Shown here: piece after piece, positions 1-23,828 of the stretch
Position numbering within the stretch: the stretch's first letter is position 1
Layout of the letters: every line of letters begins with the position of its first letter
Assembly (NCBI GenBank): GCA_025201365.1
Contig: JAIXMF010000021.1
Location: 62,001-126,000 of the forward strand
DNA from: Syncephalis plumigaleata
Taxonomy: Eukaryota > Zoopagomycota > Zoopagomycetes > Zoopagales > Piptocephalidaceae
Direction of reading: 5' to 3'
DNA length: 64,000 nucleotides
Notes under the pieces: generated by a model
Told to the model about the DNA's origin: nothing
What the model saw: only the letters and a program-made list of their open reading frames with translations
Databases searched by the model: none
Program-made: the position numbers and the translations under genes

Positions 1-1
1 C

Positions 2-1670: not shown

Positions 1671-3380
1671 ATGGGCTCGCCTCATTCCAAAGCACGCCGA
1701 CAGAGTCAAGCATCGGTACGTAGTGCGCCAACCGACTATCGTCATCGTCGTCCATCCGCGGGCAGTGTCGTGGAATTGACTCAGACACGATGCTATTCAG
1801 ATACTGGCATGAAGCCTATAGCCAGTGTCTCCCCTAAATACAAGAATAAAAGACGGTCACGACGTTACTCTGGTTTGGAGTCACGTATTAGTTTGCAGGA
1901 ATGGTTGGGCGATCATTACAACGACGTTTATGACACGCCACCCATCAAGTCGTCGTCCTACAAGGAGATGACGAGTAACAAATCGACGACGAATCGAGGT
2001 AGATTACACGACTTTTTCTCAAAGAAATCTCGAAAATCGAGAACGCTAGCGGAATCACCATGTAGTGATAGTGATATCGACAATGACAGTGGTGACAACG
2101 GTGGCAGTTGCAATTGTGACAATAATGCCAATGACAATGGTGACAATGATGATAAATGCTCGGTACGAACAGCAAAGTCTAGGCGAAAGCTTTCCTGGGG
2201 ATCGCTAATACGCACGTCAGATAATGCATCCGAGAATACGAATGAATCATCGTCATCATCAATAAGATCATCATCATCATCATCATCATCATCGAAGACT
2301 GAACCGAAAAAAGCAGTGTCCACGATAGTCAAGAATGGCCTACTTGTCCCAAGGTGTGAAGAGGAGATAGCACGGTAAGCAAGCAAAACAAGTAATACAC
2401 TTGGCTAATTCAGATAAAAACAATCGCTTTTATCTTCTTAACAAAAGCGAGAATAACAAGCATTACATTCTTAATCAAGTATTCGGTCGTAATTATTTCA
2501 TACCACTTGATAATGTTAAACGAGTATTGGACGTCAATACAGGCACAGGCATTTGGGTTCTAGTAAGTGGTGATGATGATGGCGATGACAATAATATGCT
2601 AGCAAGGATATGAATGAATGATTAATGCGCGTATACGTGCTTGTCAATGATACTCATAGGAAATGGCTACTGCCTGTCCCAACACATTATTCCTTGGTAT
2701 AGATACGGAAAAGTGTTTTCCACAGTGTACAATGCCACCTAATTGTCGATTTGAATGTATGAATATATTTCACGGTAAGTGTATAACATAGCGAGAGAAA
2801 GAGAAAGAGAAAGAGGCACAAGGTATAATTAACGCATTCCATTGTTGCTGTTGCTATTGCTAAAGGGCTTGATTGTGCATCGGAACTATTCGATTATGTT
2901 CATATTCGTTTACAACTCGCCTTTATCCCTACTGATGCGTGGCAGCAAGTACTACTAGAGATGTATCGTATCACTAGTCCCGGTGGATGGATTGAGGTAG
3001 TCGAATGGGATGCATTCTATCGACAAGGCGGTCCAATTAGCAATCGAATGACCGATGTAGCGCGACAATTATTGAGTATGCGTGCTTGCGATCCAAGTAA
3101 AGTGCCACGACTTGATGGAAGAATCACAGACGCTGGTTACACGCAAGTGACTACACGCGCTTATGATATACCATTAGGCCGTTGGGGTGGCAGTATCGGA
3201 CTGCAGATGATGCTTGACATCGAGTCAATAGTGCGTATTGTCGCACCGAATGCCATTAAGGCGGGGCTATTCGGTCCGGATGAGGTGCCAACATTGCTCA
3301 ATGAATGGGAAAAGGAAATGGACGTGACTAAACCATTTGTAAGATATTATGTTTATACGGGACAACGTCCTAATAAATAA
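1671..3380 (+). CDS. MT2: putatively N-myristoylated LaeA-like methyltransferase
   Basis: Complete paralog, 482 aa. Exons 1671-2374, 2448-2562, 2660-2774 and 2866-3380 join in frame. The start was chosen at MGSPHSKARRQS: Gly2, Ser6, Lys7 and following basic residues fit the N-myristoyltransferase consensus and recur in MT3, MT4 and MT6. Residues about 15-230 are a Ser/Asp/Asn-rich, probably disordered extension with a Ser run encoded by TCA/TCG repeats. The methyltransferase core follows: VLDVNTGTGIW (first motif-I Gly is Asn), GID at the end of beta-2, FDYVHIR, the R-P/S-G-G-W strand-4 region, G-R-W-G-G, and the terminal strand YYVYTGQRP. An ORF covering 2401-2613 is only exon 2 plus intron; the acceptor at 2447, not 2413, keeps the frame and matches the EIDR/ELDR junctions of MT4 and MT5. 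A LINE begins about 100 bp after the stop. Confidence 0.85.
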
Positions 3381-3462
3381 GTTTATTACATAATGCATCT
3401 TGGTCTGGTCAGCTCTATTAATCTCATCTCGTTTACACACGATTGTAAGCATGAGCAAGTCA

Positions 3463-3481
3463 TTTCTTGGTAATAACGTTA
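3463..3481. repeat. Target-site duplication, left copy
   Basis: Reads tttcttggtaataacgtta and recurs exactly at 10025-10043. The next base on the left starts the element's A-rich tail; the base after the right copy is unrelated flank. A direct repeat of this size is expected from target-primed reverse transcription. Confidence 0.9.
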
Positions 3482-3594
3482 TTTTTATTTTTATTTTTAT
3501 TTTTTAAAGCAAGTGGGCCGCTGCTGTTAATAATTAAATGAATAAAGTTAACTGCATTCTCAAATTATTGTGTAAAAATGATTCGAGTTAGGCC

Positions 3595-3612
3595 GCCACG
3601 TCTTTACGTGGG
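3595..3612 (-). other. Hairpin at the LINE ORF2 stop / 3' UTR
   Basis: A perfect 6-bp inverted repeat (ccacgt at 3596-3601, acgtgg at 3606-3611) closes a CTTT loop, with further GC pairing (ggcc/ggcc) possible outside a small asymmetric loop. It lies directly after the ORF2 stop in the 3' UTR, where LINE 3' ends often carry structure bound by the reverse transcriptase. The functional role is inferred. Confidence 0.4.
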
Positions 3613-3618
3613 CCGGCC

Positions 3619-6600
3619 CTAAAGGCTCCACGAGGGGGCTACCATCTTGAGGTAATACTCCGTTCGGAATACTACCTTGTTGATGGAGTCCCAGGAAGTA
3701 GGTTCACTCGGCGAGGAGTGAGAGGAGCCAGTATGCGGCCGATCCGCATTCTGGCTGGGTCTGGGGCCAGTCAGTTGGCCTGGGGGGTTCGCTGGGGTCT
3801 GGTTGATGGATTTCCAGGTGCCTATGATGCGCTTTACCTGCTTGCATCTTGGGATCCATATTCTTCTCCATACGATGTCTAGTGCTTTTGTTGACATATG
3901 ATGTATGACGCTTGTTCTTTCTTCTTTTGTTAAACCTTTTTGCGTCATGTCTAGTTGAAGCTCCTCACTCGGCCAGCCCAGCAGGTAGCCTACATCGTGG
4001 AGGGGATGTAGTGGGGTGGCTCTGTGCGCTGTTTCTGCCACTTTCACCAGTCGAGGGTGGATTGACCTTTCCGCCCTTTCCCTGTTGATTCTGCTTATAA
4101 TCCTCATTCCTTCCTGGAATATTTCGAATTTCGCATTTCTTTCCACTTCCCCCTCGTTGACGTCACAGTTGACTATATGCCTCCAATTTTCGCTTTCCCC
4201 TTTGGTACACCTACAGCATACGTCCGTAGTGTATTTTTCCTTGCTCCATAGGTGCTGTCTAGCTAAGGTAGGTAACTGACCCGTCGCTAGCTTGATCGCG
4301 AACTCCCTCTTGTGCTGCGCTCTTCTCAATGCTCTTTCATCTTCACTTCTGTCCCTTTGCGCTACCACGTTCATCTCTTGCTCCAATCTGGTCCTCAGCG
4401 ACGGGTGGTGCTTGAGTATATGCTGCTTGAGTGTTCTTGCGTGTCGCGCCTTGCTTTGTTTCTTGATCAGTTGTCGTGGTGGAAGCAATGTGTTCAGCCC
4501 TGACGCCAGCAGATCGTACTGGTGGACCTTTCCTGGCACTGTATTCAGTGTCCATCTAGGCACCTGATTTGTGGTGACGGCTGCCGCTTTCGCCTCCATG
4601 TCTGCCATCTCGTTTCCCACTGTGCCTATATGCGCCCTAGTCCATTCTATTTCTGTGCTTGCTTCTCGTCTCGCGACTCTATCTGCTATCAACTCCCATA
4701 TTTTGTATGTGGGCGTTGCTCTTCTTTTCGCTCTGGACCAGGGCACCGCTTCCGTGACATACTGCTTCCACCAGGCCACCGAGGTCATGGAGTCCGTCAT
4801 GATCTTGATTGCTATGCTGTTTGGCGCGCATGCTATCGCGTGGGCTATCGCCATAGCTTCGAGCATATCTGAGTGGCAGTGTGGACCTGCGTACCTTCCC
4901 GTTGCTACTGCCACCTTCGCGTTTCCTCTCATAACTATCGCTGCGTAGCCTCCTTCTTTGTCTGGGCCAGTTGGATTTGTGACTGATCCATCTGTCCATA
5001 TAAGCACCGTCTCGCTGTCTTGGATCTCCGACCAGTTGTACTGTCTGCCTTGCGCGTCTGTGGACCACGCCGCTAGGTTTTCCTCGGTGAATGGTAGCAG
5101 CGTACTGTACTCCTCTCGATCTGCCAGTCTAGCTGCTATGGCCATACTCTTGGCTTTAGATGCAAGTTTGGGCCACCTTTCTTCCAGTTTCTTGTACCAT
5201 TTCGGTGCGCCTCCCTGCCTTTCATTTCGATTTGTGATGGCATTGTAGCTCGCTAGCCTGGGTGTATCGAGTCCGTCAGTCAGTGCTATGTCTTTCATCT
5301 CCACTAGGTCGAACCTCTCCGCTGCTTCTCTAACGTCTCTTCGAGTCGTTGGAGTCGCTGCGTCTTCTAACAAAATATCATCTATCCTCTTGGATTGTTC
5401 GAGTTCGTCCCCTAGTACCACCTTCAGCTCCCTCGTATGCAGTCGGTATGCCAGGTGAATAGCGTACACTCTATTTCTATCGCGTGTTTCCGTGTAACTG
5501 TTGTATATCGATCTGATACTGTTGACAAGACTGCATGCTGCTTCTTCTTGTGCTCTTGCTGATTCACCTAGCATACCTGGGCTATCCAACCTCCTCATTA
5601 AGTCCGCTATTTGGGAAGTGTCCATAGCGTCTCTCACGTTGGTCAGATTGAATCCTTGCGGCGCCCATAGCAATACGTTTGGCATAGACCTAGCCATGTG
5701 TGCTTTGCGTTTGATTAGCGTGAGCCAGCTTCTATCCAGCTCGTCGCACTGTGAGTCCGACAGCGGTAGAGTAGCTGCTTTGTGAGTAATCGCCGGTATT
5801 ATCACTGAGTTGATGATATATATCGCAATCTCGTGACTGATCTCCTTCCGCCTTATAATGCTGCAAAGCCCTTTAACTGATTGATGGATGATTCTGAGTG
5901 GCTCTTTGCTCTTGCCGTCCAAGGACAGCCAGCAGCCGAGTAGTCGGAAAGGTATTGTCGGTGGCGCCACCGTCTGTACCAGACCCGCTTCTCCTTCCGC
6001 CAATCGAATTTTCGGTAGTGATTCCGCTACTGAGTTGCCTAGAGGATCTTTCGCCGTATGAATCGTTTTGTTGCAATTCACCTCGATATCGTGTAGTTCG
6101 AAGAAGGATCTACAGATATCTGCCAGCCTTTGCAAGGTGTCACGATCTTCTGCTACTAGAGTTAGGTCATCTGCGAAGGCTCCATATGCTACTATCTTCT
6201 GTGTAGTGCCCGGTTGTCGTTCTCTCATCGCGTATCCTATTTTGGATTCATCGAGTTTGCTGAGTAGCGTGTCGTAGAATATCAGCCATAACGTGGGTGA
6301 GTTCACTTCTCCCTGGTCCAAGCCGCACTCAGGGTGGTGGGCTTCTGTTTGACCGTGCGCTGTAATAACCGAAGCTGTTCTGCTGTTAAATATGTTCTCT
6401 AGCAGAGTTATGAACTCTTCCGGCACTTTTATTCTTCGTAGCGAGCAGGCTAGGCTTTGCCATGAGACCGAGTCGTATGCTCGTTTCACATCCAGCATGA
6501 GCACCTCTAGTCCTTTCTTGTAGCAGATCGAATCATCCATCACTGATCTCAGAATTTGTACAAAGTCGGTAGCTTGGTTCCCCCTAGTGAAGCCGAAGTT

Positions 6601-8712
6601 CCCTCCTCGCAGTACATGATTCTTCTCCAGTATGTTTTGTAAGCGCTTCGTCATGGATATCGAGAATAGTTTGCGCATCGTCTCTAGCAGGGTGATTGGC
6701 CGCAGCTGCGCCATATCTCCACACCAGTCTGTCACTTTCGGGATGGGTATGATTTTTCCGTGTTTCCAAGTTTGCGGTATGTCGCTGCGTTGTAAACACG
6801 TCGTTATCATAGCTGCCATGATTCTATGGATTCGCTTGCTGGCTTGTTTCAACATCTCGTTTGTGACTCCCGACTCTCCTGGCGCTTTAGCGGAGGGAAG
6901 TTGACGAAGCGTGGCCTCCAGCTCCTCCACCGACACGTGGTCCATGAGATTATCGTATATACTTTCGTGAACGTGCGGCATTGGCGCGTAGGCGTCTCTC
7001 CACCTAGGGTGTGTCATTGGGTCCGTACCGTTTCTAATCGACATCCACTGTATAAAGTAATCTCGAACCCGCTGACGTACTTCCTCCGGTCTATCCTCGA
7101 TCTCATGACTGCTCGTTTGCACGACCGTGATGGTTTGCAGAGGTTTCCCTCTTTCCAATATGTTCGTCAAGGTTCTCTTCATGTCCGTATGGAAGTTGAA
7201 GTTTCTTGCTGTAACTGCCTTTTGAATCTTGTCAGCTACCTCTCTTTTCCTTGCACGACTATATTGGTTGTGCAATCTCGTCCTCAGCCTTCTAATCTCT
7301 CCTAGGATGATCCCACCATGACTGTTCGCCGATTCGGCCAATAGCTCCACGCTAGGATGTTGCGCGGCTATTCTTCTGATCTCGCCTCCTATCCTTCTAT
7401 CTGATCCACCTTTGCGCAGGATCCTTGCTAGCTTCCTGGTTACTTGTAGCGTGGGATTTAACATCATAGGTTTGTTGGGCTTCCTTTTGCGGACGGTCGT
7501 GAACGGTAAGGTGTCCTCGGCACATTTCATCAGGTGAGTGGAGAGCTTGTTCCATAGCTCGCTGATGTAAGGCATATTCGAGTGTGGTAGGTTCGGTTGA
7601 GTACGCGTAAATCTCTCTGCTTCTTCCATCATGCTGCACCAGTCCTTGTCTGTCGCCTCAGAGTAGTTACTCCATTGCGTTTCAGTCACACTCTTGTTGT
7701 TCAGTATCTTTCTAGGTTGGGTAACTCTGTCCTCGGCCTGCGGGAACATCATAGAGGTGGACAGCTCTAATAGGATGGGCTGGTGAGATCCAGGTATACC
7801 TTCGTTTATGTAACTGGTGTCGTCAGAGGTATCTAGCGCGTTCTCTATGCCCACTCCTGTTACCTGCTCCAAGAGGTTTGCCGATACCAGGAATAGGTCG
7901 AGCCGTGCCTTCGAAGTAGATGTGGAACCGATCATCGTGTTGGTGAATTGTCGGACATCGGGGAATCGATATCGCCATGCGTCAATGAGCTGTCGTTGAT
8001 CAAGTAAGTACTCTAGTAGTTGCGTTTCTGCTCTACTACTCGCCGGAGCAGTAAAGTCCGGTTCATCTCCTTCATGTTGCGTGGATGGCAACGCGTGGTG
8101 ACGTACCGAGCTCCTGTCAATCCATGGTTGTGGTGTTGCGTTAAAGTCGCCTGCGACTATCGTTTCGGCTCTCTTCTCACGGGCTTTGTTCAACCAGACT
8201 TTTAGGGTATTGTACATGTTGTTTGCTGTCCCGGCATCTCTTCTCCCCTGATCTGTGGGATATAGGAGCCCGACAATCAACAGACCTCTACCGCGAAAAG
8301 CCATACGTACTCCTAGCATTCTCCTATCTACTTTATAGATCTCCTGGATGTGCTTCGTCCATTCCTTCTTCAGCAGCATCGCCACTCCATGATAATTTGG
8401 TGTGTCGTCGTCTCCGGCTCCCGCGGTGATAACTGAGTATCTCCTCTGGATGTCCGGTCGGTACGGTATGCTTCTTTCTAATGCGCTCGACCAGCGAGTC
8501 TCAGTCAATATTATACAGTCTATATCTAGCGGTTCTAGTGCGTTGAGTATTAAGCTCAGCTTAGTCTCGTTCGCCGCACTTGTGACGTTCCAATGTACTA
8601 TACGCATCTTCTTCGGCCCGTCTCTTCGTATTCGGTGAAAGTTCGAATACGTGCCAACGTACGGCCATTCTATAATTTCGTTTGGGTTTTCGGGTATAAT
8701 TGTATTATTCAT
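3619..8712 (-). CDS. LINE ORF2: AP-like endonuclease, reverse transcriptase, RNase H
   Basis: A 1697-aa polyprotein that nicks target DNA and reverse-transcribes the element RNA. Endonuclease about residues 35-320: HWNVTS, ILTETRW, AGDFNATP and catalytic GSHQP. Reverse transcriptase about 600-900: SAKAPGESGV, IIPIPK, LMLDVKRAYDSVSW, GLDQGEVNSPTLW and the catalytic FADD near residue 847. RNase H about 1230-1380: WTDGS, the Glu of SDMLEAMA, MTDS, and HIGTVGNEMAD, so all four acidic/His positions are kept. C-terminal CCHC-type knuckle near 1500 (C-x2-C, then H-x4-C). The ATG at 8712 is the first in frame, 43 bp downstream of the ORF1 stop on the same strand; translation probably uses reinitiation or readthrough, as for other two-ORF LINEs. 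The domain set is complete. Confidence 0.93.
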   Translation of the reverse strand: MNNTIIPENPNEIIEWPYVGTYSNFHRIRRDGPKKMRIVHWNVTSAANETKLSLILNALEPLDIDCIILTETRWSSALERSIPYRPDIQRRYSVITAGAGDDDTPNYHGVAMLLKKEWTKHIQEIYKVDRRMLGVRMAFRGRGLLIVGLLYPTDQGRRDAGTANNMYNTLKVWLNKAREKRAETIVAGDFNATPQPWIDRSSVRHHALPSTQHEGDEPDFTAPASSRAETQLLEYLLDQRQLIDAWRYRFPDVRQFTNTMIGSTSTSKARLDLFLVSANLLEQVTGVGIENALDTSDDTSYINEGIPGSHQPILLELSTSMMFPQAEDRVTQPRKILNNKSVTETQWSNYSEATDKDWCSMMEEAERFTRTQPNLPHSNMPYISELWNKLSTHLMKCAEDTLPFTTVRKRKPNKPMMLNPTLQVTRKLARILRKGGSDRRIGGEIRRIAAQHPSVELLAESANSHGGIILGEIRRLRTRLHNQYSRARKREVADKIQKAVTARNFNFHTDMKRTLTNILERGKPLQTITVVQTSSHEIEDRPEEVRQRVRDYFIQWMSIRNGTDPMTHPRWRDAYAPMPHVHESIYDNLMDHVSVEELEATLRQLPSAKAPGESGVTNEMLKQASKRIHRIMAAMITTCLQRSDIPQTWKHGKIIPIPKVTDWCGDMAQLRPITLLETMRKLFSISMTKRLQNILEKNHVLRGGNFGFTRGNQATDFVQILRSVMDDSICYKKGLEVLMLDVKRAYDSVSWQSLACSLRRIKVPEEFITLLENIFNSRTASVITAHGQTEAHHPECGLDQGEVNSPTLWLIFYDTLLSKLDESKIGYAMRERQPGTTQKIVAYGAFADDLTLVAEDRDTLQRLADICRSFFELHDIEVNCNKTIHTAKDPLGNSVAESLPKIRLAEGEAGLVQTVAPPTIPFRLLGCWLSLDGKSKEPLRIIHQSVKGLCSIIRRKEISHEIAIYIINSVIIPAITHKAATLPLSDSQCDELDRSWLTLIKRKAHMARSMPNVLLWAPQGFNLTNVRDAMDTSQIADLMRRLDSPGMLGESARAQEEAACSLVNSIRSIYNSYTETRDRNRVYAIHLAYRLHTRELKVVLGDELEQSKRIDDILLEDAATPTTRRDVREAAERFDLVEMKDIALTDGLDTPRLASYNAITNRNERQGGAPKWYKKLEERWPKLASKAKSMAIAARLADREEYSTLLPFTEENLAAWSTDAQGRQYNWSEIQDSETVLIWTDGSVTNPTGPDKEGGYAAIVMRGNAKVAVATGRYAGPHCHSDMLEAMAIAHAIACAPNSIAIKIMTDSMTSVAWWKQYVTEAVPWSRAKRRATPTYKIWELIADRVARREASTEIEWTRAHIGTVGNEMADMEAKAAAVTTNQVPRWTLNTVPGKVHQYDLLASGLNTLLPPRQLIKKQSKARHARTLKQHILKHHPSLRTRLEQEMNVVAQRDRSEDERALRRAQHKREFAIKLATGQLPTLARQHLWSKEKYTTDVCCRCTKGESENWRHIVNCDVNEGEVERNAKFEIFQEGMRIISRINRERAERSIHPRLVKVAETAHRATPLHPLHDVGYLLGWPSEELQLDMTQKGLTKEERTSVIHHMSTKALDIVWRRIWIPRCKQVKRIIGTWKSINQTPANPPGQLTGPRPSQNADRPHTGSSHSSPSEPTSWDSINKVVFRTEYYLKMVAPSWSL

Positions 8713-8755
8713 TATATATTATGTTATATATAATATTCTAGATATATCCTGTATA

Positions 8756-9952
8756 TTATTGACTGGTTTGACCCAGTCCCATACTTCTTGTAGTAACCAT
8801 GTGTATCTTTGGTGTTCGGTCTGGATCGTCGTTGTCGTCGTCGTCGGCGTTGGCGTTGTCGTCGTCGTCAAATTCGTTTGCTGATCCATCTGGTATGTTT
8901 TCTTGCTGTTCATGTGAGTTGCTGTCATCATAGTCCATCTCATCGTCGGTTCCCTCGCGTTCTTCTGCGTTGTTGTTCTCTTGATCCTCTTCACTGCTCA
9001 TACTCGCTGGTTGCTCGTCGTTTTCGTCGACTGGCGCTGTCTTCTGCTGTCTGGGTTTAGCTGGCTCCAGACTGTTGCCGGTTAGCATAGCTAGGCCATC
9101 GACGTTTACATCACAGAAATCGCGCTTCTTTCCGTGTGTGTAACCGCCCGTACCTTGCTCTCCTACCGCCACTGGTTTCCCAGTTCTCTGTGGACCAAGA
9201 GGGGTGGGTGAGGTGCTAACTGCTTCTTCATTCTCTTCTGGCACATTCCGTTGTTGCGTGTCGTCTTCATTCGTCGTATCCACTCTCTTGCGAAGCCACT
9301 CGCTTCCGGCTTGCTTCTCTTCCGTCGCTCGCGGCGGACTCCTCATGCTTTCGCTCGCGGGGCAGAATTTCGCAATGTGTCCCACAGTATGACACTTATA
9401 ACACGCGTCGTTTCTAAATACTTTAATGTAAGAAGTATTCAACTTTATTGCCTTAGGTATGTTTGCTACAATCCCTTCAAATTTGCAAATCGCGGTTGAG
9501 GTAAAGTAATGGTTATCACCATACCTGCGAGTTACTCGTCTGACAGACAGTACTCTCGCTGCTCCTCCCAGGCTCTGCTGCATTATCCTAGCGACCTCCT
9601 CCTCCTCGTCACTAGCGTCCAAACCTACAAGACGTAGGTTTACCGGGGTGATTCCTTCGAATCCACGGATTTCCAGCTTCTTGCCGTTCACTAGTAGACC
9701 CTCTTTGACTAAGGTTCTCGCTTGATCTTGGCTTTTCGTGCTGATAATGTATTCGCCAGCGGCTGTGTCGTGGCTAGCTCTCCAATGGGTCTTGCCGAGC
9801 TTATTATCCATGGCTGATAGTATCTCTACCAGGTTGGTCGTAATCGGGACTGCGATGCAGTGGCTCTTTATACGCTTTTCTTTTAGCTGCTGCTGAGCTG
9901 CTTCTGCTTCTGCTCTGGCTGCCGCTACAGCGTATGGGGTCGGTTGTTCCAT
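8756..9952 (-). CDS. LINE ORF1: RNA-binding CCHC zinc-knuckle protein
   Basis: Predicted 398-aa nucleic-acid-binding protein of the LINE. The frame stays open further upstream, but those extra 52 codons run through the target-site duplication into flanking DNA, so I place the start at MEQPTPYAV (9952). An Ala/Glu helix comes first, then an RRM-like alpha/beta region (about residues 30-170) and a zinc knuckle CYKCHTVGHIAKFC near residues 184-198. The C-terminal half is acidic and Asn/Asp/Glu-rich and probably disordered. ORF1 proteins of this type coat the element RNA in the ribonucleoprotein that carries ORF2. Confidence 0.85.
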   Translation of the reverse strand: MEQPTPYAVAAARAEAEAAQQQLKEKRIKSHCIAVPITTNLVEILSAMDNKLGKTHWRASHDTAAGEYIISTKSQDQARTLVKEGLLVNGKKLEIRGFEGITPVNLRLVGLDASDEEEEVARIMQQSLGGAARVLSVRRVTRRYGDNHYFTSTAICKFEGIVANIPKAIKLNTSYIKVFRNDACYKCHTVGHIAKFCPASESMRSPPRATEEKQAGSEWLRKRVDTTNEDDTQQRNVPEENEEAVSTSPTPLGPQRTGKPVAVGEQGTGGYTHGKKRDFCDVNVDGLAMLTGNSLEPAKPRQQKTAPVDENDEQPASMSSEEDQENNNAEEREGTDDEMDYDDSNSHEQQENIPDGSANEFDDDDNANADDDDNDDPDRTPKIHMVTTRSMGLGQTSQ

Positions 9953-10024
9953 GTTGTACTGGTTAACTTTGATTTTTCCTTTTTCTTTTTCTTTGAAAAA
10001 ATAAAATGGGAGAAAGAGCTTTTT

Positions 10025-10043
10025 TTTCTTGGTAATAACGTTA
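10025..10043. repeat. Target-site duplication, right copy
   Basis: Exact 19-bp copy of the sequence at 3463-3481, at the 5' end of the minus-strand LINE. Together they define the empty site: MT2 3' flank joined to the sequence after 10043. Confidence 0.9.
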
Positions 10044-11706: not shown

Positions 11707-11737
<31 letters not shown>

Positions 11738-12215
11738 GCTAGTTACTCGGCCATTTCGTTGCCAGCCTTTATTGTCTATTTGGATACATGTCAACCGGAT
11801 TGCTACTTATCCTAGGATAGTTACTTTTTTGCTTGTTTTTGTTTCTTTCTTTCTTCTTCTTTCTTTACTACTATTGCCACTACTACTACTACTACTACTA
11901 CTACTATTGCTGCTTATTTCATTCTTCATACTCAGCAATTAAACATTGCTCTTGTAGTTCATTATCGTCTCTACTCCTTTTTTCATATATCATCTTGTAA
12001 TTTAATATACACACGCGCACTCACTCACTCACTCACTCATACATATTTAATATCTAACATCTAATATCTATATCGATTATTTAGTATACTACTACTACTA
12101 CTAGTTAACCTATTTGTAAGCCATAATATCATTATCACTTTTATCTATTATTCATTATTTGTTCCCATTTGTTCTCTTCTTTATTGCAGTCAACTTTTTA
12201 ATCCTCCTTGTCGTC
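10044..12215. other. Low-complexity spacer, LINE to MT3
   Basis: No protein gene seen. AATAAAG near 10086, formerly close to MT2, may be the original MT2 polyadenylation signal. Simple repeats dominate: GTT/GCT and TTA runs at 11000-11200, a CT run near 11705-11740, ACT near 11880 and ACTC near 12020. A splice-acceptor-like TTATTGCAG ends at 12189, 27 bp before the MT3 start, so MT3 may have a 5'-UTR intron. Apparent ORFs here are translations of repeats. Confidence 0.5.
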
Positions 12216-13609
12216 ATGGGTAATACCACGTCTAAGCGTCATCCTATCAATCATAATAATGTGGTGTTTAATATCAAAAAGGGAACAGCGTTACCATTGT
12301 CAGACTGTCATTCAACGTGTGCACCTAGCAACAACACGTCTACTACGCATCCATGCGCCCAGCCAACGACAGCATTTGTACAAACTATCACCGATGCATT
12401 ATCAAATCGTTTACCTCGAAAGAAGAGTAATCGATCTTTACGAAGCGTGAATAGCGAGAATAGCAGTTGCAATTATGACTTGACCGATCCATTGGGACGT
12501 CATTTCTGGTGGATCGCCCATAAGCAATGTAATTCCGGCATCCCACTCTCGCTTTCAACGAGTAACCTCCTACTGACTGACTCGACGAGCACGACACGAT
12601 TCTACGCGTTGATGAATGGTCTACGACGTAATAATAATAAAAAGATTCGACGCAATGCCTCGTCTTCAACATTGAACTCGATTACTATAGCAATGATGGC
12701 TGCTGCGAAGCGAGAGGTCGACGATGTCGATGTCAACATGGATACATTGCTAGACAAGTGGCCCATCACCGAGGAGGGACGACCATTGACGAAATCGCTA
12801 TGGAAGTATCAGCTTTATCTATTTGTACTAGGTGACTTGTTTATCGCTCCCGTGCTTAATTTGGCAAACGTACTTGATGTGGGGACAAGCGCGGGTGATT
12901 GGTCGCTTGCCGTGGCACGCGAGTTCCCTCATTGTCAGGTGGTTGGCATCGACTCGCAGGGCAACAACTATCCACACCAGCATTCCTGGCCTAATAATTG
13001 TCAATTCAAACATATTGACATCAGTCATGGTGAGTGAATCGATTGCGTAACTTTTCCTTACATATACCGTTTCGATTAATGCAATGCAAAAAAATAGGCC
13101 TGACCATTGACGCTAATCGATTCGACTTGATCCACTGGCGACATCACTTGACGAGTATTCCATCGGCGCACTGGCATTACTGCTTCTCGGAGTTGTTTCG
13201 TTGCACTCGCCCTGGCGGTTGGATACAGGTCACCGAGTCTGATGATCGTCATCTTGAATGCGGCCCGATAGCTGGTGCGATTAACATGCTCGTTCATCGT
13301 TTTGCTCTGGTGAACGACGTTGATCTCGAGTTGCTCCGCCATCTGGATGATGTGTTACGAGCGGCTGGATTTGTCAACGTCGAACGAACGATGATATCAT
13401 TGCCTATCGGCAGGTGGGGTGGTCAAGTGGGCGAGCTACTTTTACAGGACAACATCGAGAAGCTCCAAACCCATCGAAAGGCCATGCTTGAGGAGGGCAT
13501 CACCTCCGAGGAGGAGATAGACTGGCTCTTGGCAGGCTACGAACGTGAAGCGAACATGACCCAGGCATACTACAATGTTTGTATCTATACGGCACAACGT
13601 CCAAAATAG
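12216..13609 (+). CDS. MT3: putatively N-myristoylated LaeA-like methyltransferase
   Basis: 441-aa paralog in two exons, 12216-13029 and 13098-13609. I start at MGNTTSKRHP (Gly2, Ser6, Lys7, Arg8) rather than at an upstream in-frame Met, because the upstream codons cross a splice-acceptor-like TTGCAG and the MGxxxSK start recurs in the paralogs. About 200 residues of Ser/Thr/Asn-rich extension precede the core. Motif I is VLDVGTSAGDW, with the middle Gly of GxGxG replaced by Ser; the beta-2 end is VVGID; then FDLIHWR, CTRPGGWIQV, GRWGGQVGELLL and the terminal strand VCIYTAQRPK. Of the shared introns only the phase-1 one before the GLT block remains; the motif-I intron is lost. Substrate unknown. 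Confidence 0.85.
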
Positions 13610-14812: not shown

Positions 14813-16005
14813 ATGGGTAATCATCAAAGCAAAAAGCGTCGACCTTATAGAGGTAGTGACACGCAAAGTGAACGTATGTATATGATGAAAAATGAGTATG
14901 TAAATGAACAAGTTCTAAGAGACAGTTGCACGAATGTTACAAAATGAAATAGGATCAGTGAGCAATGAGCGACGTGAAAATGGATACATTCTCGAAATGA
15001 GCATAGAGGAGATTGACCGGTAGGTGTTTTGTCACGAGCGAACCATCTAAGCTAGCGTTAAAACCAACGAATATCACACATACGCATACGCAACAATAGA
15101 CTGAATCATATTCACAATGTGTTCGTCGACATTAGTGGCACATTACACCACGTTTCACTTGACAATCCACGACACGTAGTTGATATCGGTAGTGGTACCG
15201 GTATATGGATGAAGGTAAGAATGAAGCAGTTGTACAAAGTGTTGTCTTCACTCAGCATACGTAACACACACATGTATATGTAGAATATGGCCATGAAGTT
15301 TCCTGACACTCAGTTTCACGGCGTTGACTTGTTCGTCGACGTATGCCAAGAGCACATCCTACCCAATTGTAAATACATCCAGCATAATGTATTCAATGGT
15401 AATGTAGGGCGATGCCTAGCATGTACACCGAGCTAATCCTCCGTATAGGCCTGCCATTTGGCGAGCAGTCTATCGACTATGTGCATCAGCAATTGTTCAA
15501 TATCGTGGTGCGTACCGAACAATGGCCGCAACTATGTGCCGATTATTATCGCGTGCTTGCACCGGGCGGTCAAGTTGAAATAGCGGAGATCGATGGCACT
15601 CAGTTGTCCAAGGGTCCTGCCGCTCAGCGTATGGAGAACTGGATAATGCAGTCATTGAAGCAGCGTCAACTAGACTTGGGCGACATCCATCGATTGCCGC
15701 AACTACTTGCCGACACGGGATTCATCGGGATCGAACATCGAATCATTAGTATACCCACTGGATGTACCGCAGGAAAGTACGGCGAGATGGCATGGCTCGG
15801 TTGGAATAGCTTTGCGCGTATTATGCTGCCGCTACTGCTAGATGACGGCGTTGCCGCCTGGGAGTTCGAGCAAACGATGCTGGAATGGCAGCGTGAAGTC
15901 AAGGAACTGCCGAGTATCACTCAACTTCATGTCTACTCAGCTCGTCGTCCTGGTAGCGCGACGACACCTTCTCAAACCGCGTATACCGACACAGATCGAT
16001 GGTAG
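14813..16005 (+). CDS. MT4: short, putatively N-myristoylated methyltransferase with canonical motif I
   Basis: The shortest paralog, 304 aa in five exons: 14813-14873, 14953-15019, 15100-15214, 15284-15398 and 15449-16005; all phases agree. It starts MGNHQSKKRRP, a strong myristoylation-plus-polybasic signal. The N-terminal extension is only about 43 residues, so this is nearly the bare enzyme. Motif I VVDIGSGTGIW is the only copy in the array with the full D-x-G-x-G-x-G. The beta-2 acid is GVD; then IDYVHQQ and LAPGGQVEI. The WGG motif is diverged (TAGKYGEMAW). It ends HVYSARRPG plus a short tail. It holds all three introns shared among the paralogs plus one of its own in the extension. Confidence 0.85.
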
Positions 16006-18381
16006 TACGGGTCGATGAATCCATCCAACTCTAATACAATAATACGAGATGCTTGTTCACCTCTTATTAGACAAGCACTCTGCTATAAATTATTCTACAA
16101 CCATTGTAACCGGGGATCATCACATGACGATGCGTGTACGCCCTATGTACACACACACATACGATATGGCCTTTTCATTCCATTCGTAACACACACACAC
16201 ACACACATATATATATATGTATTTATACGTATAAATTGTCAATTTGTATAGAATAGCATGTAATGTGTAAATACACACACACACACACACTAAGAGCGAT
16301 GAACACATGCCTAACCATGTTTGGAGTATTATAATTATAAAACACAATATTGACAACCGAGCGAATAATGAATGCTTTAATCGCCAGAGTACGGTCAGAT
16401 ATACGAGCCATATGTATCCCCTTCATGTTCACCTATTCTCTATGGTACGAGAATGTTTTAAATTATCAAATGAGCATCATGCGTGTAATCTATACTCTAA
16501 TACGGATTGCTAGATGTATCGTTCTTGACGTGGTATAATGGGGCATATCAGTTACACCTAGCACTACCACGGTTATCTGGTCATTGTAGACCGCGTGTTT
16601 TTGCCATCAAAACAAGCAATTGGCCTTTCCGCTTCCTCATTTCTTTCTATCGAATCGGTAAATTGTACAACACCGTATCTACACGTTCCTATCTGGTCAT
16701 TGATGGTATGGCAGGGAGAACAAGCGCGTGCTATCACGAAGTTCAATGTGTAGATAATTAGCAGATGACAGCGATCATCGGTCTGCTCGATTCCGATATC
16801 ATTTGGCACTTGTCTATTTAAGCCTGCATGTAACGTAAGACGATCCATTAATGTTGTATTCAACTATTGCCGTTGTAATAAGATTATTGCGTAATATTGT
16901 AATTTATCAGCTAGGCAAGATTAACTATTTATAGACTATAGCATTCCTCACTATCATCTATATGTCATTGCCTTTCTTTCTTGCTTGCTTATTTGTTATA
17001 ACTAAATGACTGATTGCATCGTCATTGACATTAGTGTCTGTAGCATCATTCTAGGCTAATTTGCATCATTGAAGCACCATGTTTCATGCTAGCATTCTAC
17101 TTTCCTTTTTCCACGATTAGTTTCACGAAGTTCACGCGTTACCTTTGTCGTATGATAGACGGCATTCGCTATTCGTTCGCCTTTTCTCGTCTCCTAACTG
17201 TACCCCTCAATGAAGCAATACCTACCGCCTAATTTCTCGCTTTCTCTCCCTCGTCCTTTCCCCGCTTTCTTTATGCTTATCTTGAGTGTCATCGGGAACA
17301 TGACTGGTGGATTCAACTTTTTGCGCGTCCCATAAAGAATACATGCGGATTCGGCACAATATGCACGTGGTGACGCGATTCAGCGGTTGTTCCACGGCAC
17401 TCTTATTTGTTGCCTAATTTTAAGCAATCACCACTAAACAGAGGGTGCCTGCGTTGTACACGGTCAGAGAAGAATGAGCTCATCTCCTCATCAGAACAGT
17501 TCTATACATCATTCTATTGTCTGGATAGAACTTGCCGCTGTTTCAGTATCAAAGCACCGCGGCCTGTTCTTCCGTGAGCGTCGTTCTATTTAACCAACGC
17601 CTAACGTGCTCGCCTATTATTCGTATTATTCATCCGGTTATGCATCCCACTCAATTAAACTAACGACCTTTTATTCTGTTTTACTGATATTATTTCATAC
17701 GATTTACGAATTAAAAGCATTAGCAAGCTAAATGACAAATTAGCAAACCTGGACCTAATAATAATATCGCTATTACTTTAATCGAATTACAATTTTGACT
17801 CATTACCATTACAATACGCGCACGCAAGTAAGTATACTCGCTAATAATCGTAAGAGTAAAATGTGTTCTGTGTTTCATTCTTGTTTCTTCTTTTGCTCGT
17901 TAATCCGTTATAAGCATTATTATATACTTGACTGCACGTAGACTGCTATCCCTTTTTTTGTTCTGCTTTTGACATCATCTAAAGTAGATAGTGATGTGTG
18001 CTCCATTTGCAAATTGACATGTTGTAATACATATTGTCATTTCAGTGGTTGTTCATTATTTCCATCATATGATATTAATTCTTTATTATATATATTCCTT
18101 TGACAATTATATTATAGTCTCCTGGTTTGTTACGCAAGTGATATTATCACAATCTGACGACAGAGTTATCAGCATCATTCCCTCCTACTAGCTGACCGAC
18201 TACTCGACGAATTAAACAGTATCGCATACTATTATCGGTGTAGTGCTTTTGGAAGCCAGCGACTAACATAAAATCAATCCAATTGATAATAGTAACTAAA
18301 CGTCAAGGAAAAGATTATAACGCTTTTAAACTTGCAATAGCGTATCCATCACGTTTACTTTATTCCGCATTCTGTTTTGTC
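16006..18381. other. Spacer MT4-MT5
   Basis: 2.4 kb without a convincing gene on either strand. CA/TA tracts lie at 16190-16219 and 16270-16291. I saw no methyltransferase motif that would mark a decayed seventh copy, but short remnants could be missed by eye. Confidence 0.45.
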
Positions 18382-20869
18382 ATGCCAATGCCCGATCCTT
18401 TTTGGTCTTTATCACCGTCGTCGTTGTCGTCGTTGTCGTCGTCCGCATTACCGTCATCCTCCCCGCCAGTTTCAAGTCCCTTGGCCAATGCATCCTATAG
18501 ACATTTAAGCGCAACCACCATATCATCCACCACTACCACTATCACCACCGCGAGAACCGTGAAATATCGCAGTTCATACGCGACACTATTAAGGAAACCC
18601 AAGTCTATTAAGATAGTGCATCCTACTCTACGCGAGCAAGATGATTCACCGTCAAATGCTCGCCAAGCGAAATCATCACGTCGACTGTCAGCAATGGCGA
18701 CCGAGAAGTTGCGTCGTATCGGTAGAAGCATGCGTTTCTGGCGTCATTGCTTCTTTATCGCTGATCTCCCGACAAGTAGAAGCAGTGGTAGTAGTAGCAA
18801 TACGCCTGCCATGAGAAGATGTCCCATGCAAACGCAACCCGCTTACAAGACCACCATCGTATCCAAGCCCACTTCATCCATGCAAAGTACCATTCATGCC
18901 AAATACTCGAGCTACGAGAGCTGGGCGTCCGATCAGCCTTTATATCTTCAGGATGATTATACCACGGATGTTTCCGTATTCTACGATTGGTACGCGAGTC
19001 CAAACACCGAGAAAGACCAGTTTACCGCGTCATTCTACGTCGACGATAGTATCGCCTATTCCTGCGATAATTTGTCCATGCCATCTCATAGAATCTCCCG
19101 CACCTACTCGGGCACCTGTCTTTCCAATAAGAATCATAACCATACAAATCGCCTTCTAGACGCGCAGCCATCATTACCGCCATCACCATTACCGCCATCA
19201 TCATTACCATTACCATTATCATTATCATCGTCATCGTCATCGTCATCGTCATCATTATATAGTAGAAATCGTCACATGTCAGCGGGAGCTGGCGACAGGA
19301 GTAGGCAATCATCACGTCTGCCTCCATTGCCTCCGTCGCCGAAAACGGCCGATTGCTTTCCTGGTCCATCATCGAGTATCACGCAAGTAACATCCGGTCC
19401 ATCATCGTTGCCATTATCGATGGTGTCATCACATGCGGTTATGCAGTCTCCGGTGGTGGTCAAGCCACTCGAGTCGCGATCGGCATCGTCTAGAATGTCC
19501 CGTAAAGAGTCGTCTCATACGTTGAAATCAACTCGAAATAGCAGTCAGCATTCTTCACTCGACATCAATAGAGAGTTCACCCTAGCATCGCCGGCTACCA
19601 TGTCATCCGCCAGTAATTTCAACGAGTTTGTGCAATCTTCTCTAACTGCAGGCGGAAATAAACTGCGCAAACGTTCGACTACTCAAATGAGTATTCATCC
19701 TCAGCATCGTGGTATATCCACGCCCATATTGCCTGAAACGCCGCGTCGCTCAACCAACACTGCACCTTGTAGTCGTAATGTAAGCATCGACTTGGTCATG
19801 CTTAGTCCGAGTGATACGATCGCTTCCCTCCCCGTTAGTCGGCATGGAAGTGTTAATAGTGCAGCCAGTGCTCACTCATCAAGACGCAAAAGTGTCGACA
19901 CGGCACGATCAACGCCCTGCAGTTCTAAGCGTAGATTCCGGAACAAATCCGCATTACCGGCTATTACGATTAAAGATCAACATGAATTAGATCGGTACGT
20001 GTTATGATTATTGCCATTTATTTACTATAATATTTATTCTCTTTACATTAGACAAGACCAATTGCACTATTTGTTGCGCACTTTCCTACACAATAATCAT
20101 TTAGCATTTATCAATACTACCGGCAACATACTTGACATCATGACTGGTTCAGGCGTGTGGGCACTAGAAATGGCTTCGGAATATCCCGCCTGTCAGGTTC
20201 ATGGTGTGGATTTACTGCCGGCACAACCCTCGCACGTCTTACCGCCCAACTGCCACTTTCGCTTAACCATTAGTATGACCGGTAAGTTTGCTCATCTACC
20301 TATGTAAGCAAACTAATTATTTGCTATTTTATTATCATTATTATCAATCATCACTCCTAGCCTTACCTTATCAGAATGATGAATTCGAGTATCTACACCA
20401 TCGATTCGTTGCTCTACATGTCCCGCGGGAAATACAACCGGCCTATTGGCATGAATGCTACCGTGTATGTAAGCACGGTGGTATTATCGAAGTGCAGGAG
20501 CGTAACATGGTCATGCGTAATGTGGGCGAGATAGGTCAGCAGATTAACATTTGGCTCGGTAGTATTCTTATACATCAGAATGGTATTCCGCTTGCCGTTC
20601 AAGAGATCGCGAACGATATCAAATGCGCAGGCTTCCACATACTAGACACGCAAGAATTACCGGTGGCCGTCGGACAATGGGCAGGTAACATGGGTGCGGC
20701 AGGCTTTGCGGAAATTCGTAGCTTTCTCGAGGAACATCGCGAATATCTTGTGCGTCTATTTACACTGGAAGACGGCGAGTTTGACCATTTACTAGCCGAC
20801 TGGCAGACAGAGATCAACACTTATCGTACTGTCTGGACATTGCAAGTGATTATCGCACGTAAAATATAA
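18382..20869 (+). CDS. MT5: LaeA-like methyltransferase with long Ser-rich N-terminus
   Basis: 783-aa paralog; exons 18382-19994, 20052-20281 and 20361-20869. The start is the first in-frame ATG (MPMPDPFW); upstream frame is open but has no ATG. Unlike MT2, MT3, MT4 and MT6 it has no MGxxxS/T start. About 535 residues of Ser/Pro/Thr-rich, low-complexity sequence precede the core, with Ser runs and several Arg/Lys-Ser-Ser patches that could be phosphorylated. Core: ILDIMTGSGVW (first motif-I Gly is Met), VHGVD, FEYLHHR, CKHGGIIEV, GQWAGNMG and the final strand LQVIIARKI. The ELDR/Q junction intron (phase 2) is shared with MT2 and MT4; the motif-I intron is absent. The true 5' end could lie upstream in an unrecognised exon. 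Confidence 0.78.
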
Positions 20870-22739
20870 GCTATTCATTAGAGTATGCGATACTCCAGAG
20901 TAGTCATACCATTGCCAATTTTAAATATAATCAGTCTGTCAAGTCTGTTTATCGTTTTGCTTAACTCGTACTATCATTTCTATCATTATCTTCATTGTTT
21001 ATTCATTAAATGTAACATCGAATCATGATGTGAAACATTGTTTATTTACTGTTATACTACATGCGTGTAATGTTTTCCTTTAACTTGGTCGATTGGCAAA
21101 GCTATATTTATACATACATACATACATACATACAGGACATTCCTGTTTGAATAAATAGAATAATCCATGACAACAAGTTTACAATGGAGGTATACATACA
21201 CACGGACATGGACACGGACACACGATTGTTACCAATTGATCATATGCTTGGTATTAGTCATATGTCAGCCTTTGGCTGAATGAATTGCCGCGGACAAGCA
21301 TTAACAAAGCGTAACACTCAATTCGAATAATGAATACATTCACGAATATTCTATGCATTTTCATTGTTCTCAAAGCTTGATGAATCTACAAAATGAATAA
21401 TGAAGAATAAAGAAAGGTGATGGTACGCATCTAGACCGGTCCATGGACGTGCACGATCGTTACTAGTGGCTCAATTCCCCCCTCCCCCCCATTCACTCAT
21501 TTGCATGCCTCGACTGTAATGCAACGGATGTTTCTATAGGAAACTTTAACACTGTCGTGCCAATCATTCTGCAAAAAAGGACTGAGTAAACCATGCATTC
21601 TTGTAAGTGATGGCGAGTGCATATCGCGTGTCACTACCATAATCACCACACGCACACGTGTGTATATGTACATGCCTATCATTGGCTATCTGTACATGTG
21701 GGTTGGACAATGTTTCGTAATGTCCCTCCATTTATGCAAAATGAGAGAGGAGAGAGGAGAGAGGAGGATAGGTGGACAGGTCAAGCGACAAGTAAACCGG
21801 ATAAATTCGCATGCATCAAACGCTGCACTGGCATGACAATGAAGATACGACGATTACCTTCCATAGTTAACAGTTCAACTTTACTATCCATTCAGTAGCA
21901 ACTGCAATATCATCAATATCATTGATTACATTCATTTCCTTACGTACTGCGCGCTCTTTCCTTTCTATTCTTTTTTAACCATACTCTCATCCTGCGATAT
22001 TCATCATCTCCATCATCTTCTTCATCTTCATCAGTATTACTAGCCATCTGTATTGCTGGCACATTACTACATACATACCAATTTCTCCCATCGTTTATTA
22101 GTATACTCGCATACTAGTGTATACATCATTAATGTGCTACCGTGCTCATATGCATTGATTGTTCACGCACATACACTATCGTTCACAGTTGCTCGGCAAA
22201 TTAAGTGACTAGCTTCTAAGCAATACAAATGAGAACCTTGAGACGTCGCTAACTGCATCGGCGCCTTGTATTTGCATATCCCTTCTACTCATAGCGGTAC
22301 ACGATAGCAGACGTATAATCATTGATCATCTATAAAAGTGTTTCCTACGCTATCATCACATCTCGCTTTCTCCTTCATCATTCTCGGATTGTACTGCCAG
22401 GTTTATGTATCATCTTGTTTCTTCTTTCGTCAGTTGCTAATTGTGCGTGTGCAATCACAACTAGGTTGACTAATTATCATATTTTGCAATTAACTATTAT
22501 TTCCATTTATTGTCATTTATTACCAAGTTACAACATCGGAGTTTCATTACTCATACTGACTTTTTTCTCTTGTCCCTTGCCTTTTCCTTGCCCTTCCTTG
22601 CCTATTGTGAGCGATAAATATTAGTCCTTCTTTTGTTTAATAACCAAAAGTGCTAGCACTTTATTATCCTCTACCTTTCTTCACTACGACTACGACGACA
22701 ACGACAACGACAACGACTGCTATTCCACCTCATTCGAAC
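20870..22739. other. Spacer MT5-MT6
   Basis: No gene seen. A TACA repeat lies at about 21111-21135 and a GAGAGAG tract near 21750. The last 400 bp are pyrimidine-rich with a possible long leader for MT6; a 100-codon ORF at 22322-22624 has no family resemblance and probably is leader sequence. Confidence 0.45.
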
Positions 22740-23828
22740 ATGGGCCAGTCCAACACCAAACATCCTCGAATCCGACGACGTGGATCGGAGTTATCACCCT
22801 CGACGGATAAATCGATTTATTCCTCTACAAGCATGGATTCATTCGACAAAAGTAAAAACAATCTACTTAGTGTTCGTATAGTGAATCCATTTGCAATCGA
22901 TTGTAAACGTAAGAAGAGTCTGTCGTCTACAAGTGATCAGAGCGGATATAGCTGCTACTTACTGCCGACGAATATACACGAGAGTGAGCGACTAAACAAG
23001 CAGCATGAATTCCTAAGGATGGGACTAAAGACCAACCATTTTGCCCCGATCCATCATCCCAGGAAGGTACTCGATGTCGGCACGGGAACCGCAATCTGGA
23101 TCAAGGACATGGCGAGACTATGGCCATCATCGAAATTCTATGCCATGGATTTGATACATCCTGGACCGCAAGATGTCAAGTTTAAGTTTGCATTTGCCGA
23201 CCTACTCACCGGTAAGTATAATGGTTAATAAGTGTTTGTAGTAGATCTACACGCTACTATTCCAAACGTATTTATACCGACACGATGGCTGATCTATTAC
23301 TCCTCAGGTCTACCGTATTCTAGTAAGACGTTCGACTATGTACATCAACGGTTTCTATCCTCGGCCATCCCTACCAATAAATGGATGTCGGTATTGGAGG
23401 AACTCTATCGAGTAACACGTCCTGGTGGCTATCTCGAAATCGTCGACACAAACGTGAAACTCTCCACGGTAGGACCTATAACCGGTCAGATATTCGCACT
23501 CATTACCAACATGATGTCACTGGGCGGTATCGATTTGGAACTAGTCGGCAATGAGCTCGGGCTATGGCTAACGGAGGTTGGCTTCGAGCTAGTTGAGAAA
23601 CGTATCGGTAAAGTGCCCGTCGGTGAATGGGGAGGCAAGACAGGCCAGATGTGCTTTAACTCTTGGTGCCTGCTCATACGTTCACTCAAGGATAAACTAC
23701 TCGCCTCGAATTCATTGCGTTCCTGGGACTTTGAACTACTAATGAGCGAATGGCAGGCCGAGATCGAGGAAATCAATACGAGTTGCGAAATGGTAATCTA
23801 CGTGGCTAGACGTCCACTCAAAGCATAG
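22740..23828 (+). CDS. MT6: putatively N-myristoylated LaeA-like methyltransferase
   Basis: 330-aa paralog in two exons, 22740-23211 and 23308-23828. It starts MGQSNTKHPRIRRR: Gly2, Thr6, Lys7 and a basic cluster, again fitting N-myristoylation plus electrostatic membrane binding. About 75 residues of extension, then the core: VLDVGTGTAIW (third motif-I Gly is Ala), YAMD at the end of beta-2, FDYVHQR, TRPGGYLEIVD, GEWGGKTGQMCF and the terminal strand MVIYVARRP. Only the shared phase-1 intron before GLPYSSKTFDY is kept. It is the last member of the array in this window; the next gene is unrelated and on the other strand. Confidence 0.86.

What the first reader, a model, noticed from the sequence alone, without database searches (positions are those of the whole stretch)
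1671..23828. LaeA-like methyltransferases with N-myristoylation starts
MT2, MT3, MT4 and MT6 begin MGSPHSK, MGNTTSK, MGNHQSK and MGQSNTK: Gly2, Ser/Thr6, Lys7 and basic residues after. This is the N-myristoyltransferase consensus (as in Src and G-alpha proteins). It is the most constant feature of otherwise unalignable N-terminal extensions, which argues for selection. LaeA-type methyltransferases are usually thought of as nuclear or cytosolic, so a membrane-anchored, tandemly expanded branch would be a new variant. MT5 lacks it and MT1 is cut off.
Basis: partly seen in the sequence, partly recalled or inferred. Interest (0 to 1): 0.82.

Follow-up and report, generated by a model that had tools for sequence, protein, structure and literature searches.

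The report
Methyltransferase family with lipid-anchor start signals
A mould that parasitises other moulds carries a large family of methyltransferase-like proteins, most of which begin with the short signal that cells use to attach a membrane-anchoring fat, so these usually soluble regulators are probably held on membranes.

Summary
The window is from Syncephalis plumigaleata. Spliced models confirm the starts of MT2, MT3, MT4 and MT6 and no Gly2 in MT5. I count 36 loci of this family (haplotype copies collapsed); for 26 I find a Gly2 start, the 5'-most in-frame ATG of its frame; 23 of these have Ser/Thr6, 24 match PROSITE PS00008, 19 have Lys/Arg7. Three of the 26 are not securely joined to their domain. 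Domains share a median identity of only 27.7% (25 compared). Readable starts in relatives: 2 of 2 from S. pseudoplumigaleata and one environmental MT3 relative keep Gly2; Thamnocephalis lacks it; 4 of 4 S. fuscata models are inconclusive. The genome encodes N-myristoyltransferase. Best reading: a lineage-expanded family of N-myristoylated, basic-tailed methyltransferase-fold proteins, membrane-anchored in cis. LaeA-like enzymes tethered in trans (VapA-VipC-VapB) and N-myristoylated PRMT8 are known, hence a new variant of a known kind. Lipidation, localisation and substrates are untested.

The parts
1..1189 (+). MT1, 3' part; its ATG lies 155 bases before the window (C124:61846; L001 9346). Start MGNYHARSRR (Gly2, Ala6, Arg7). 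Exons -154..385, 455..569, 630..1189 in window numbering (base 0 = last base before the window)
1671..3380 (+). MT2, 482 aa, exons 1671-2374, 2448-2562, 2660-2774, 2866-3380; start MGSPHSKARR
   Evidence: Pfam Methyltransf_25 1.9e-9
1671..1691 (+). N-myristoylation signal of MT2 (MGSPHSK)
12216..13609 (+). MT3, 441 aa, exons 12216-13029, 13098-13609; start MGNTTSKRHP; identical to the public model P0021
12216..12236 (+). N-myristoylation signal of MT3 (MGNTTSK); environmental relative P0024 starts MGNNSSR
14813..16005 (+). MT4, 304 aa, exons 14813-14873, 14953-15019, 15100-15214, 15284-15398, 15449-16005; start MGNHQSKKRR; the only one of the six with an intact GxGxG SAM motif
14813..14833 (+). 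N-myristoylation signal of MT4 (MGNHQSK); the public model P0022 instead starts inside what I read as intron 1
18382..20869 (+). MT5, 783 aa, exons 18382-19994, 20052-20281, 20361-20869; long Ser-rich extension, no Gly2 start found
22740..23828 (+). MT6, 330 aa, exons 22740-23211, 23308-23828; start MGQSNTKHPRIRRRGS
22740..22760 (+). N-myristoylation signal of MT6 (MGQSNTK); S. pseudoplumigaleata ortholog P0003 starts MGQFSTKHPRIRRRGS

Best explanation
These proteins belong to a lineage-expanded family of class I SAM-methyltransferase-fold proteins in Syncephalis, most of which carry an N-terminal N-myristoylation signal (Met-Gly-[N/S/Q/A]-x-x-[S/T]-[K/R]) followed by a basic, disordered linker of variable length. 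After Met removal, N-myristoyltransferase would attach myristate to Gly2; myristate plus the basic tail would hold the methyltransferase domain on a membrane face, with the linker as a tether. The signal looks ancestral to the Syncephalis family and kept by selection while the rest of the extension drifts. Shown from sequence: the starts, their enrichment, their presence in relatives, the fold model, the NMT gene. Inferred: actual myristoylation, membrane location, and a role like VipC-VapB of Aspergillus (LaeA-like methyltransferases held at the plasma membrane until a signal), here with the tether in cis.
For: 26 of 36 family loci have a Gly2 start with no in-frame ATG before it in its frame, and 24 of 26 fit PS00008 (wording of PS00008 in PMC2829124, passages). 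Information content is high at residues 3 (2.59 bits), 6 (3.32) and 7 (2.19), low at 4, 5 and 8 (1.08, 0.77, 0.85): the NMT profile rather than general similarity. Domains are old: median pairwise identity 27.7% among 25. MT1 confirmed the pattern blind. Readable starts elsewhere: S. pseudoplumigaleata P0003 MGQFSTK and P0028 MGGVQSR; environmental MT3 relative P0024 MGNNSSR with only 36/168 identity in the rest of the extension. Public models P0021 and P0096 of this genome carry the same starts. NMT gene at C373:113 kb. Whole-genome pattern MGNxxS[K/R]: 21 sites against 1 for the reversed-pattern control. Model of P0001: mean pLDDT 86, residues 1-39 almost all below 50, then a methyltransferase fold.
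Against: No experimental start-site, lipidation or localisation data. Starts are my gene models. 4 of the 6 public models of this genome that I saw start elsewhere (P0001, P0022, P0025, P0026): P0001 at an internal Met, P0022 and P0026 in what I read as introns, P0025 in a locus that I count as negative. 10 of 36 loci, MT5 among them, have no accepted Gly2 start. C362:591k and C1:1191k have Pro6 and fail PS00008. For C340:1078k and C223:1053k the join from the Gly2 ORF to the domain exons was not shown (none found for C340; not modelled for C223), and for C329:1276k the introns offered were unusually long; without these three it is 23 of 36. One haplotype copy (C18, of C318:957k) has an in-frame ATG 141 bases before the MG codon. 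Thamnocephalis P0029 starts MSVNLSR. All 4 S. fuscata models lack the start (probably wrong starts). The search favoured finding MG: up to two introns were allowed, and four starts came from MG-directed scans or by eye.
Confidence: 0.82

Rival explanations
1. Relic of duplication: the family founder happened to start MGN..S[K/R] and the copies keep it by descent without myristoylation.
For: All members are homologous, so the shared start is partly inheritance; parsimony on the tree puts Gly2 at the root of the fungal part.
Against: Domains share a median identity of 27.7%, and positions 4, 5, 8 and 11-18 of the extensions are poorly conserved, yet residues 2, 3, 6 and 7 hold. Residue 3 varies only within N/S/Q/A, and K and R interchange at 7, as an enzyme specificity would allow.
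Confidence: 0.06
2. Wrong starts or another N-terminal signal: translation begins elsewhere, or the basic Ser-rich N-termini are mitochondrial presequences.
For: Four of the six public models of this genome that I saw start elsewhere; mean net charge of residues 3-30 is +3.7; one haplotype copy has an upstream in-frame ATG.
Against: In 26 of 26 of the copies counted the MG codon is the 5'-most ATG of its frame; the public models of MT3 and C362:362k agree; P0003 and P0028 of another species start with Gly2 too. Presequences do not require Gly2, N/S/Q/A3 and Ser6 (general knowledge, no predictor was run).
Confidence: 0.08
3. Myristoylated, but working as membrane-bound small-molecule or lipid-head-group methyltransferases rather than VipC-VapB-like regulators.
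For: Best fold match is an uncharacterised archaeal methyltransferase (3mgg), followed by phosphoethanolamine N-methyltransferases and natural-product methyltransferases.
Against: These are generic class I matches at 12-19% identity in the 50 rows shown. 13 of the 35 domain sequences examined, among them 5 of the 6 in this cluster, depart from GxGxG in motif I, which argues against a metabolic enzyme for those.
Confidence: 0.3

Closest known systems
VapA-VipC-VapB of Aspergillus nidulans (PMC4299510, passages seen)
   Same: LaeA-like methyltransferase-fold proteins held at the plasma membrane
   Different: The tether is a separate FYVE zinc-finger protein (VapA, in trans); here the predicted tether is a myristate on the protein itself. 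Release to the nucleus is not shown here
PRMT8 (PMC8621972, passages seen)
   Same: A methyltransferase with a myristoylation site at its N-terminus, targeted to the plasma membrane by myristate plus basic residues
   Different: An arginine methyltransferase with a PRMT core, in neurons; this family is Pfam Methyltransf_25/23 in a fungus and has about 36 loci
LaeA and LlmA-LlmJ (PMC4299510, passages)
   Same: Class I SAM-methyltransferase domain; expansion into paralogs; velvet genes are present in this genome too
   Different: LaeA is described there as constitutively nuclear and LlmF as nucleo-cytoplasmic; orthology to LaeA was not tested here
Bacterial class I methyltransferases of Ktedonobacteria (P0045, P0065, P0078; also P0007 of Thermogemmatispora, whose place in that class is recalled)
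   Same: The organism-named relatives outside Zoopagales seen in the listings; 30-37% identical to MT6 over the aligned part's non-Zoopagales rows
   Different: Bacterial; no myristoylation system (general knowledge)

Membership tests
N-myristoyltransferase substrates (PS00008) | Gly at residue 2 | tested here: met
   26 of 36 loci; 5 of 6 in the cluster; three of the 26 not securely joined to their domain
N-myristoyltransferase substrates (PS00008) | Residue 3 not charged, Pro or large hydrophobic; residue 6 small and uncharged; residue 7 not Pro | tested here: met
   24 of 26; failures C362:591k and C1:1191k with Pro6. Wording of the rule in PMC2829124
N-myristoyltransferase substrates (PS00008) | The cell has N-myristoyltransferase | tested here: met
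   PF01233 at G000:C373:113 kb, four exon matches, best E 1.2e-17
N-myristoyltransferase substrates (PS00008) | Myristate is attached | not testable with these tools
   needs labelling or mass spectrometry
LaeA / LaeA-like methyltransferases | Class I SAM-methyltransferase domain | tested here: met
   Pfam Methyltransf_25 and _23 above cut-off in MT2, MT3, MT4 and MT6; MT1 only for Methyltransf_25; MT5 was not scanned
LaeA / LaeA-like methyltransferases | Intact SAM motif I (GxGxG) | tested here: inconclusive
   22 of 35 domain sequences intact; in the window only MT4 of 6
LaeA / LaeA-like methyltransferases | Orthology to LaeA | not tested
   no LaeA sequence was compared
LaeA / LaeA-like methyltransferases | Velvet proteins as partners | tested here: inconclusive
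   Velvet genes are present (PF11754); interaction not testable
VapA-VipC-VapB | Membrane tether supplied by a separate FYVE protein | not tested
   No FYVE search was made; the predicted tether here is in cis
PRMT8 | PRMT catalytic core | tested here: not met
   No PRMT family among the Pfam matches of the five proteins scanned; it works like PRMT8 in anchoring only

The most novel reading that the evidence does not exclude
A family of membrane-anchored regulators in which the lipid signal is kept even where the enzyme is not: in the cluster MT1, MT2, MT3 and MT6 keep Gly2 although each has lost a SAM motif I glycine, so many members would be myristoylated pseudo-methyltransferases acting as membrane adaptors, a cis-tethered counterpart of VapA-VipC-VapB, perhaps gating velvet-type regulators during contact with the fungal host.
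Probability: 0.25. Interest if true: 0.78.

Novelty: new variant of a known kind. Interest (0 to 1): 0.63.

Why it matters
If true, one fungal lineage has put most of a methyltransferase family of about 36 loci on membranes with a lipid, instead of borrowing a tether protein. It gives the open question of what LaeA-like enzymes do away from chromatin a clean handle: G2A mutants of defined proteins. Some public gene models omit the signal (P0001, and probably P0022 and P0026), so it could be missed in surveys that rely on them.

Tried and rejected
A myristoyl-electrostatic switch by PKA was considered: PKA-like sites R[R/K]x[S/T] in residues 7-60 occur in 9 of 26 against 5.5 expected, p 0.077 (the looser [RK][RK]x[ST] gave 12 against 7.6, p 0.035), so not claimed. 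Palmitoylation was considered: Cys in residues 3-20 in only 3 of 26. A 5' exon with Gly2 for MT5 was looked for: the one ATGGG within about 2.4 kb upstream, at 16538, soon meets a stop. Literature searches for a myristoylated LaeA-like or other methyltransferase, listings seen only: 2 papers; 302 papers, 20 listed; 4 papers with Syncephalis and methyltransferase; 13, 12 listed; 364, 12 listed; 31, 10 listed; 143, 10 listed; five phrases, 0 papers; one search found the VapA papers (60, 10 listed) and PRMT8 (22, 5 listed). Other Gly2 proteins of the genome from the pattern search: short pieces of four were fetched; three were translated without my recognising a family, and the fourth piece did not span its site.

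Ten loci without an accepted Gly2 start: MT5; C362:501k, C112:856k, C318:1135k, C329:1281k, C13:457k, C223:1167k, C124:15k, C362:594k and the three-domain gene C373:818k. For several of these the upstream exon was not resolved, so they are 'not found', not 'absent'. A short MGNNISS frame 1.9 kb before C318:1135k was not accepted. In C223:1167k an ATGGG lies upstream but out of frame with the coding exon in this assembly, while the S. pseudoplumigaleata ortholog P0028 starts MGGVQSR; I left it counted as negative. C1:722k (L029) gave no match to the family profile and was dropped. C35:294k runs off its fetched piece and was left out. The domain models used are automatic and some contain doubtful extra introns.
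Full report
What the window is. The MT6 domain matches a Syncephalis plumigaleata protein record at 100% on a contig of 334,664 bases, the length of contig C124 in which the window lies. Syncephalis belongs to Zoopagales (Zoopagomycota); that it lives on other fungi is general knowledge. The assembly seems to hold second-haplotype copies: C155 matches window 1-3481 and 10054-24844 at 98.6% and 99.0%.

Checking the starts. Exon-by-exon models give MT2 MGSPHSKARR, MT3 MGNTTSKRHP, MT4 MGNHQSKKRR and MT6 MGQSNTKHPR; MT5 begins MPMPDPFW and I found no Gly2 exon for it. MT1 is truncated in the window; the upstream DNA (L001) shows its first exon opening MGNYHARSRRNTLD. It has Gly2, Asn3, Ala6 and Arg7, which PS00008 accepts.

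Genome-wide. A search of the own genome with the MT6 domain gave 74 matches, mostly single exons. I fetched the loci, located the domain with a profile built from MT1-MT6, two Syncephalis orthologs and four other relatives, and enumerated possible starts upstream with up to two introns, extended. Collapsing near-identical haplotype copies I count 36 loci: 7 on C124 (MT1-MT6 and one at 15 kb), 3 on C223, 7 on C362, 1 on C112, 2 on C1, 3 on C318, 3 on C329, 2 on C68, 1 on C13, 2 on C35, 1 on C24, 1 on C340, 1 on C373 (three domains in one apparent gene) and 2 on C279. For 26 I accept a Gly2 start, for example MGNTTSRK, MGQVPSRG, MGQTMSTR, MGNSPSKT, MGAEASKY, MGNQPSKK, MGQALSRL, MGNQPTKL, MGSSISRP, MGNNSSKN. 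In all 26 copies counted the MG codon has no in-frame ATG between it and the preceding stop; of nine further haplotype starts checked, eight agree and one, the C18 copy of C318:957k, has such an ATG 141 bases upstream. Residue 3 is N 13, S 6, Q 5, A 2; residue 6 is S 21, T 2, A 1, P 2; residue 7 is K or R in 19; a K or R occurs within 7-9 in 25. 24 of 26 satisfy PS00008, whose wording I checked in PMC2829124 (passages). Three of the 26 are insecure: no consensus join to the domain exons was found for C340:1078k, none was modelled for C223:1053k, and those offered for C329:1276k are unusually long. Without them it is 23 of 36, with Ser/Thr6 in 20 of 23.

Is it chance? In the window's first 25 kb plus loci L001-L034, 929 ORFs of at least 50 codons begin at a 5'-most ATG; 59 begin MG and 33 begin MGxxx[ST]. 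By my reading of the list 28 of the 33 are N-termini of this family (haplotype and window duplicates included) and 5 are not. Among 9122 ATGs with ten open codons in L001-L034, 0.79% begin MGxxx[ST], the real ones included. Binomial values are; they ignore kinship. Kinship alone is not enough: 25 of the 26 domains have a median pairwise identity of 27.7% (maximum 45%), and positions 4, 5, 8 and 11-18 of the extensions carry 0.5-1.1 bits while 3, 6 and 7 carry 2.2-3.3. On a FastTree tree, with bacterial tips left unlabelled, Fitch parsimony puts Gly2 at the root with 9 changes; branch supports were not examined, and unresolved starts were scored as absence. A whole-genome scan for one codon form of MGNxxS[K/R] found 21 sites against 1 for the reversed control; 6 of these sites (4 loci) are family members and the other 15 were not identified.

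Other species. Three database searches were made (20, 4 and 882 hits, of which 20, 4 and 120 were listed). I read 32 sequences. S. pseudoplumigaleata: MT6 ortholog P0003 starts MGQFSTKHPRIRRRGSDL and P0028 starts MGGVQSRSSS, 2 of 2. Environmental MT3 relative P0024 starts MGNNSSRPHS, with 4/8 identity in residues 1-8, 36/168 in the rest of the extension and 120/250 in the domain. S. fuscata: P0002, P0005, P0023 and P0027 all start elsewhere; against the S. plumigaleata models they begin at internal positions or, in P0005, in apparent intron sequence, so they are inconclusive. Thamnocephalis P0029 starts MSVNLSRSNS: no Gly2. Environmental fragment P0030 begins at the domain. Public models of this genome that I saw: P0021 (MT3) and P0096 (C362:362k) carry the Gly2 start; P0001 (MT6) begins at Met32, P0022 (MT4) and P0026 in apparent introns, P0025 (C223:1167k) at MAYNGWVQSR: 2 of 6.

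What the proteins are. Pfam assigns Methyltransf_25/23. The AlphaFold2 model of the public MT6 protein has mean pLDDT 86 with residues 1-39 of low confidence, followed by alternating strands and helices as in class I methyltransferases; the best PDB match is 3mgg, a Methanosarcina methyltransferase, then phosphoethanolamine N-methyltransferases. Motif I GxGxG is intact in 22 of 35 domain sequences examined but only in MT4 of the six window genes.

How it probably works. Met removal exposes Gly2; the genome's N-myristoyltransferase acylates it; the following basic residues add electrostatic membrane binding; a disordered linker separates the anchor from the domain. PRMT8 reaches the plasma membrane by myristate plus basic residues (PMC8621972, passages). 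In Aspergillus nidulans VipC and VapB are held at the plasma membrane by VapA and released on a signal (PMC4299510, passages). Velvet genes exist in this genome (Zoopagomycota velvet clades are described in PMC10845976, passages). The regulatory role is inference; the anchoring is a strong prediction; neither is shown.

Verdict. Neither lipid-anchored methyltransferases nor membrane-held LaeA-like proteins are new, but I found no report of a large family anchored in cis by myristate (searches listed under Tried and rejected; capped listings of open-licence papers). New variant of a known kind.

Noticed in passing
3482-10053: A LINE-type retrotransposon (1697-aa ORF with endonuclease, reverse-transcriptase-like and RNase H-like parts by eye, plus a 450-aa ORF with a zinc-knuckle-like motif) separates MT2 from MT3; contig C155 lacks it, so the insertion is probably heterozygous and young.
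   Followed up: partly
L023 (C26) and L033 (C373:814001-823900): Apparently one gene with three methyltransferase domains of this family in a row; its start was not found.
   Followed up: partly
window MT1-MT6: Five of the six domains in the cluster have lost a glycine of SAM motif I; MT4 alone is intact. The S. pseudoplumigaleata MT6 ortholog has the same Ala substitution.
   Followed up: partly
G000:C1:1359959, C1:3009657, C2:486822, C24:52239, C24:79460, C68:395264, C318:1122921, C329:174642, C329:1308670: Further sites of the form MGNxxS[K/R], not identified as members of this family; possibly other N-myristoylated proteins or chance.
   Followed up: partly
L018 (C223:1167k): An ATGGG upstream is out of frame with the coding exon in this assembly although the S. 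pseudoplumigaleata ortholog has a Gly2 start: assembly error or real loss.
   Followed up: no
L003 (C155 copy of MT6): The second-haplotype copy of MT6 has a one-base length difference in exon 1 against the window copy: assembly error or a broken allele.
   Followed up: no
MT domains against P0007, P0045, P0065: Organism-named relatives outside Zoopagales in two listings are bacterial, mainly Ktedonobacteria, which hints at exchange between bacteria and early fungi.
   Followed up: no
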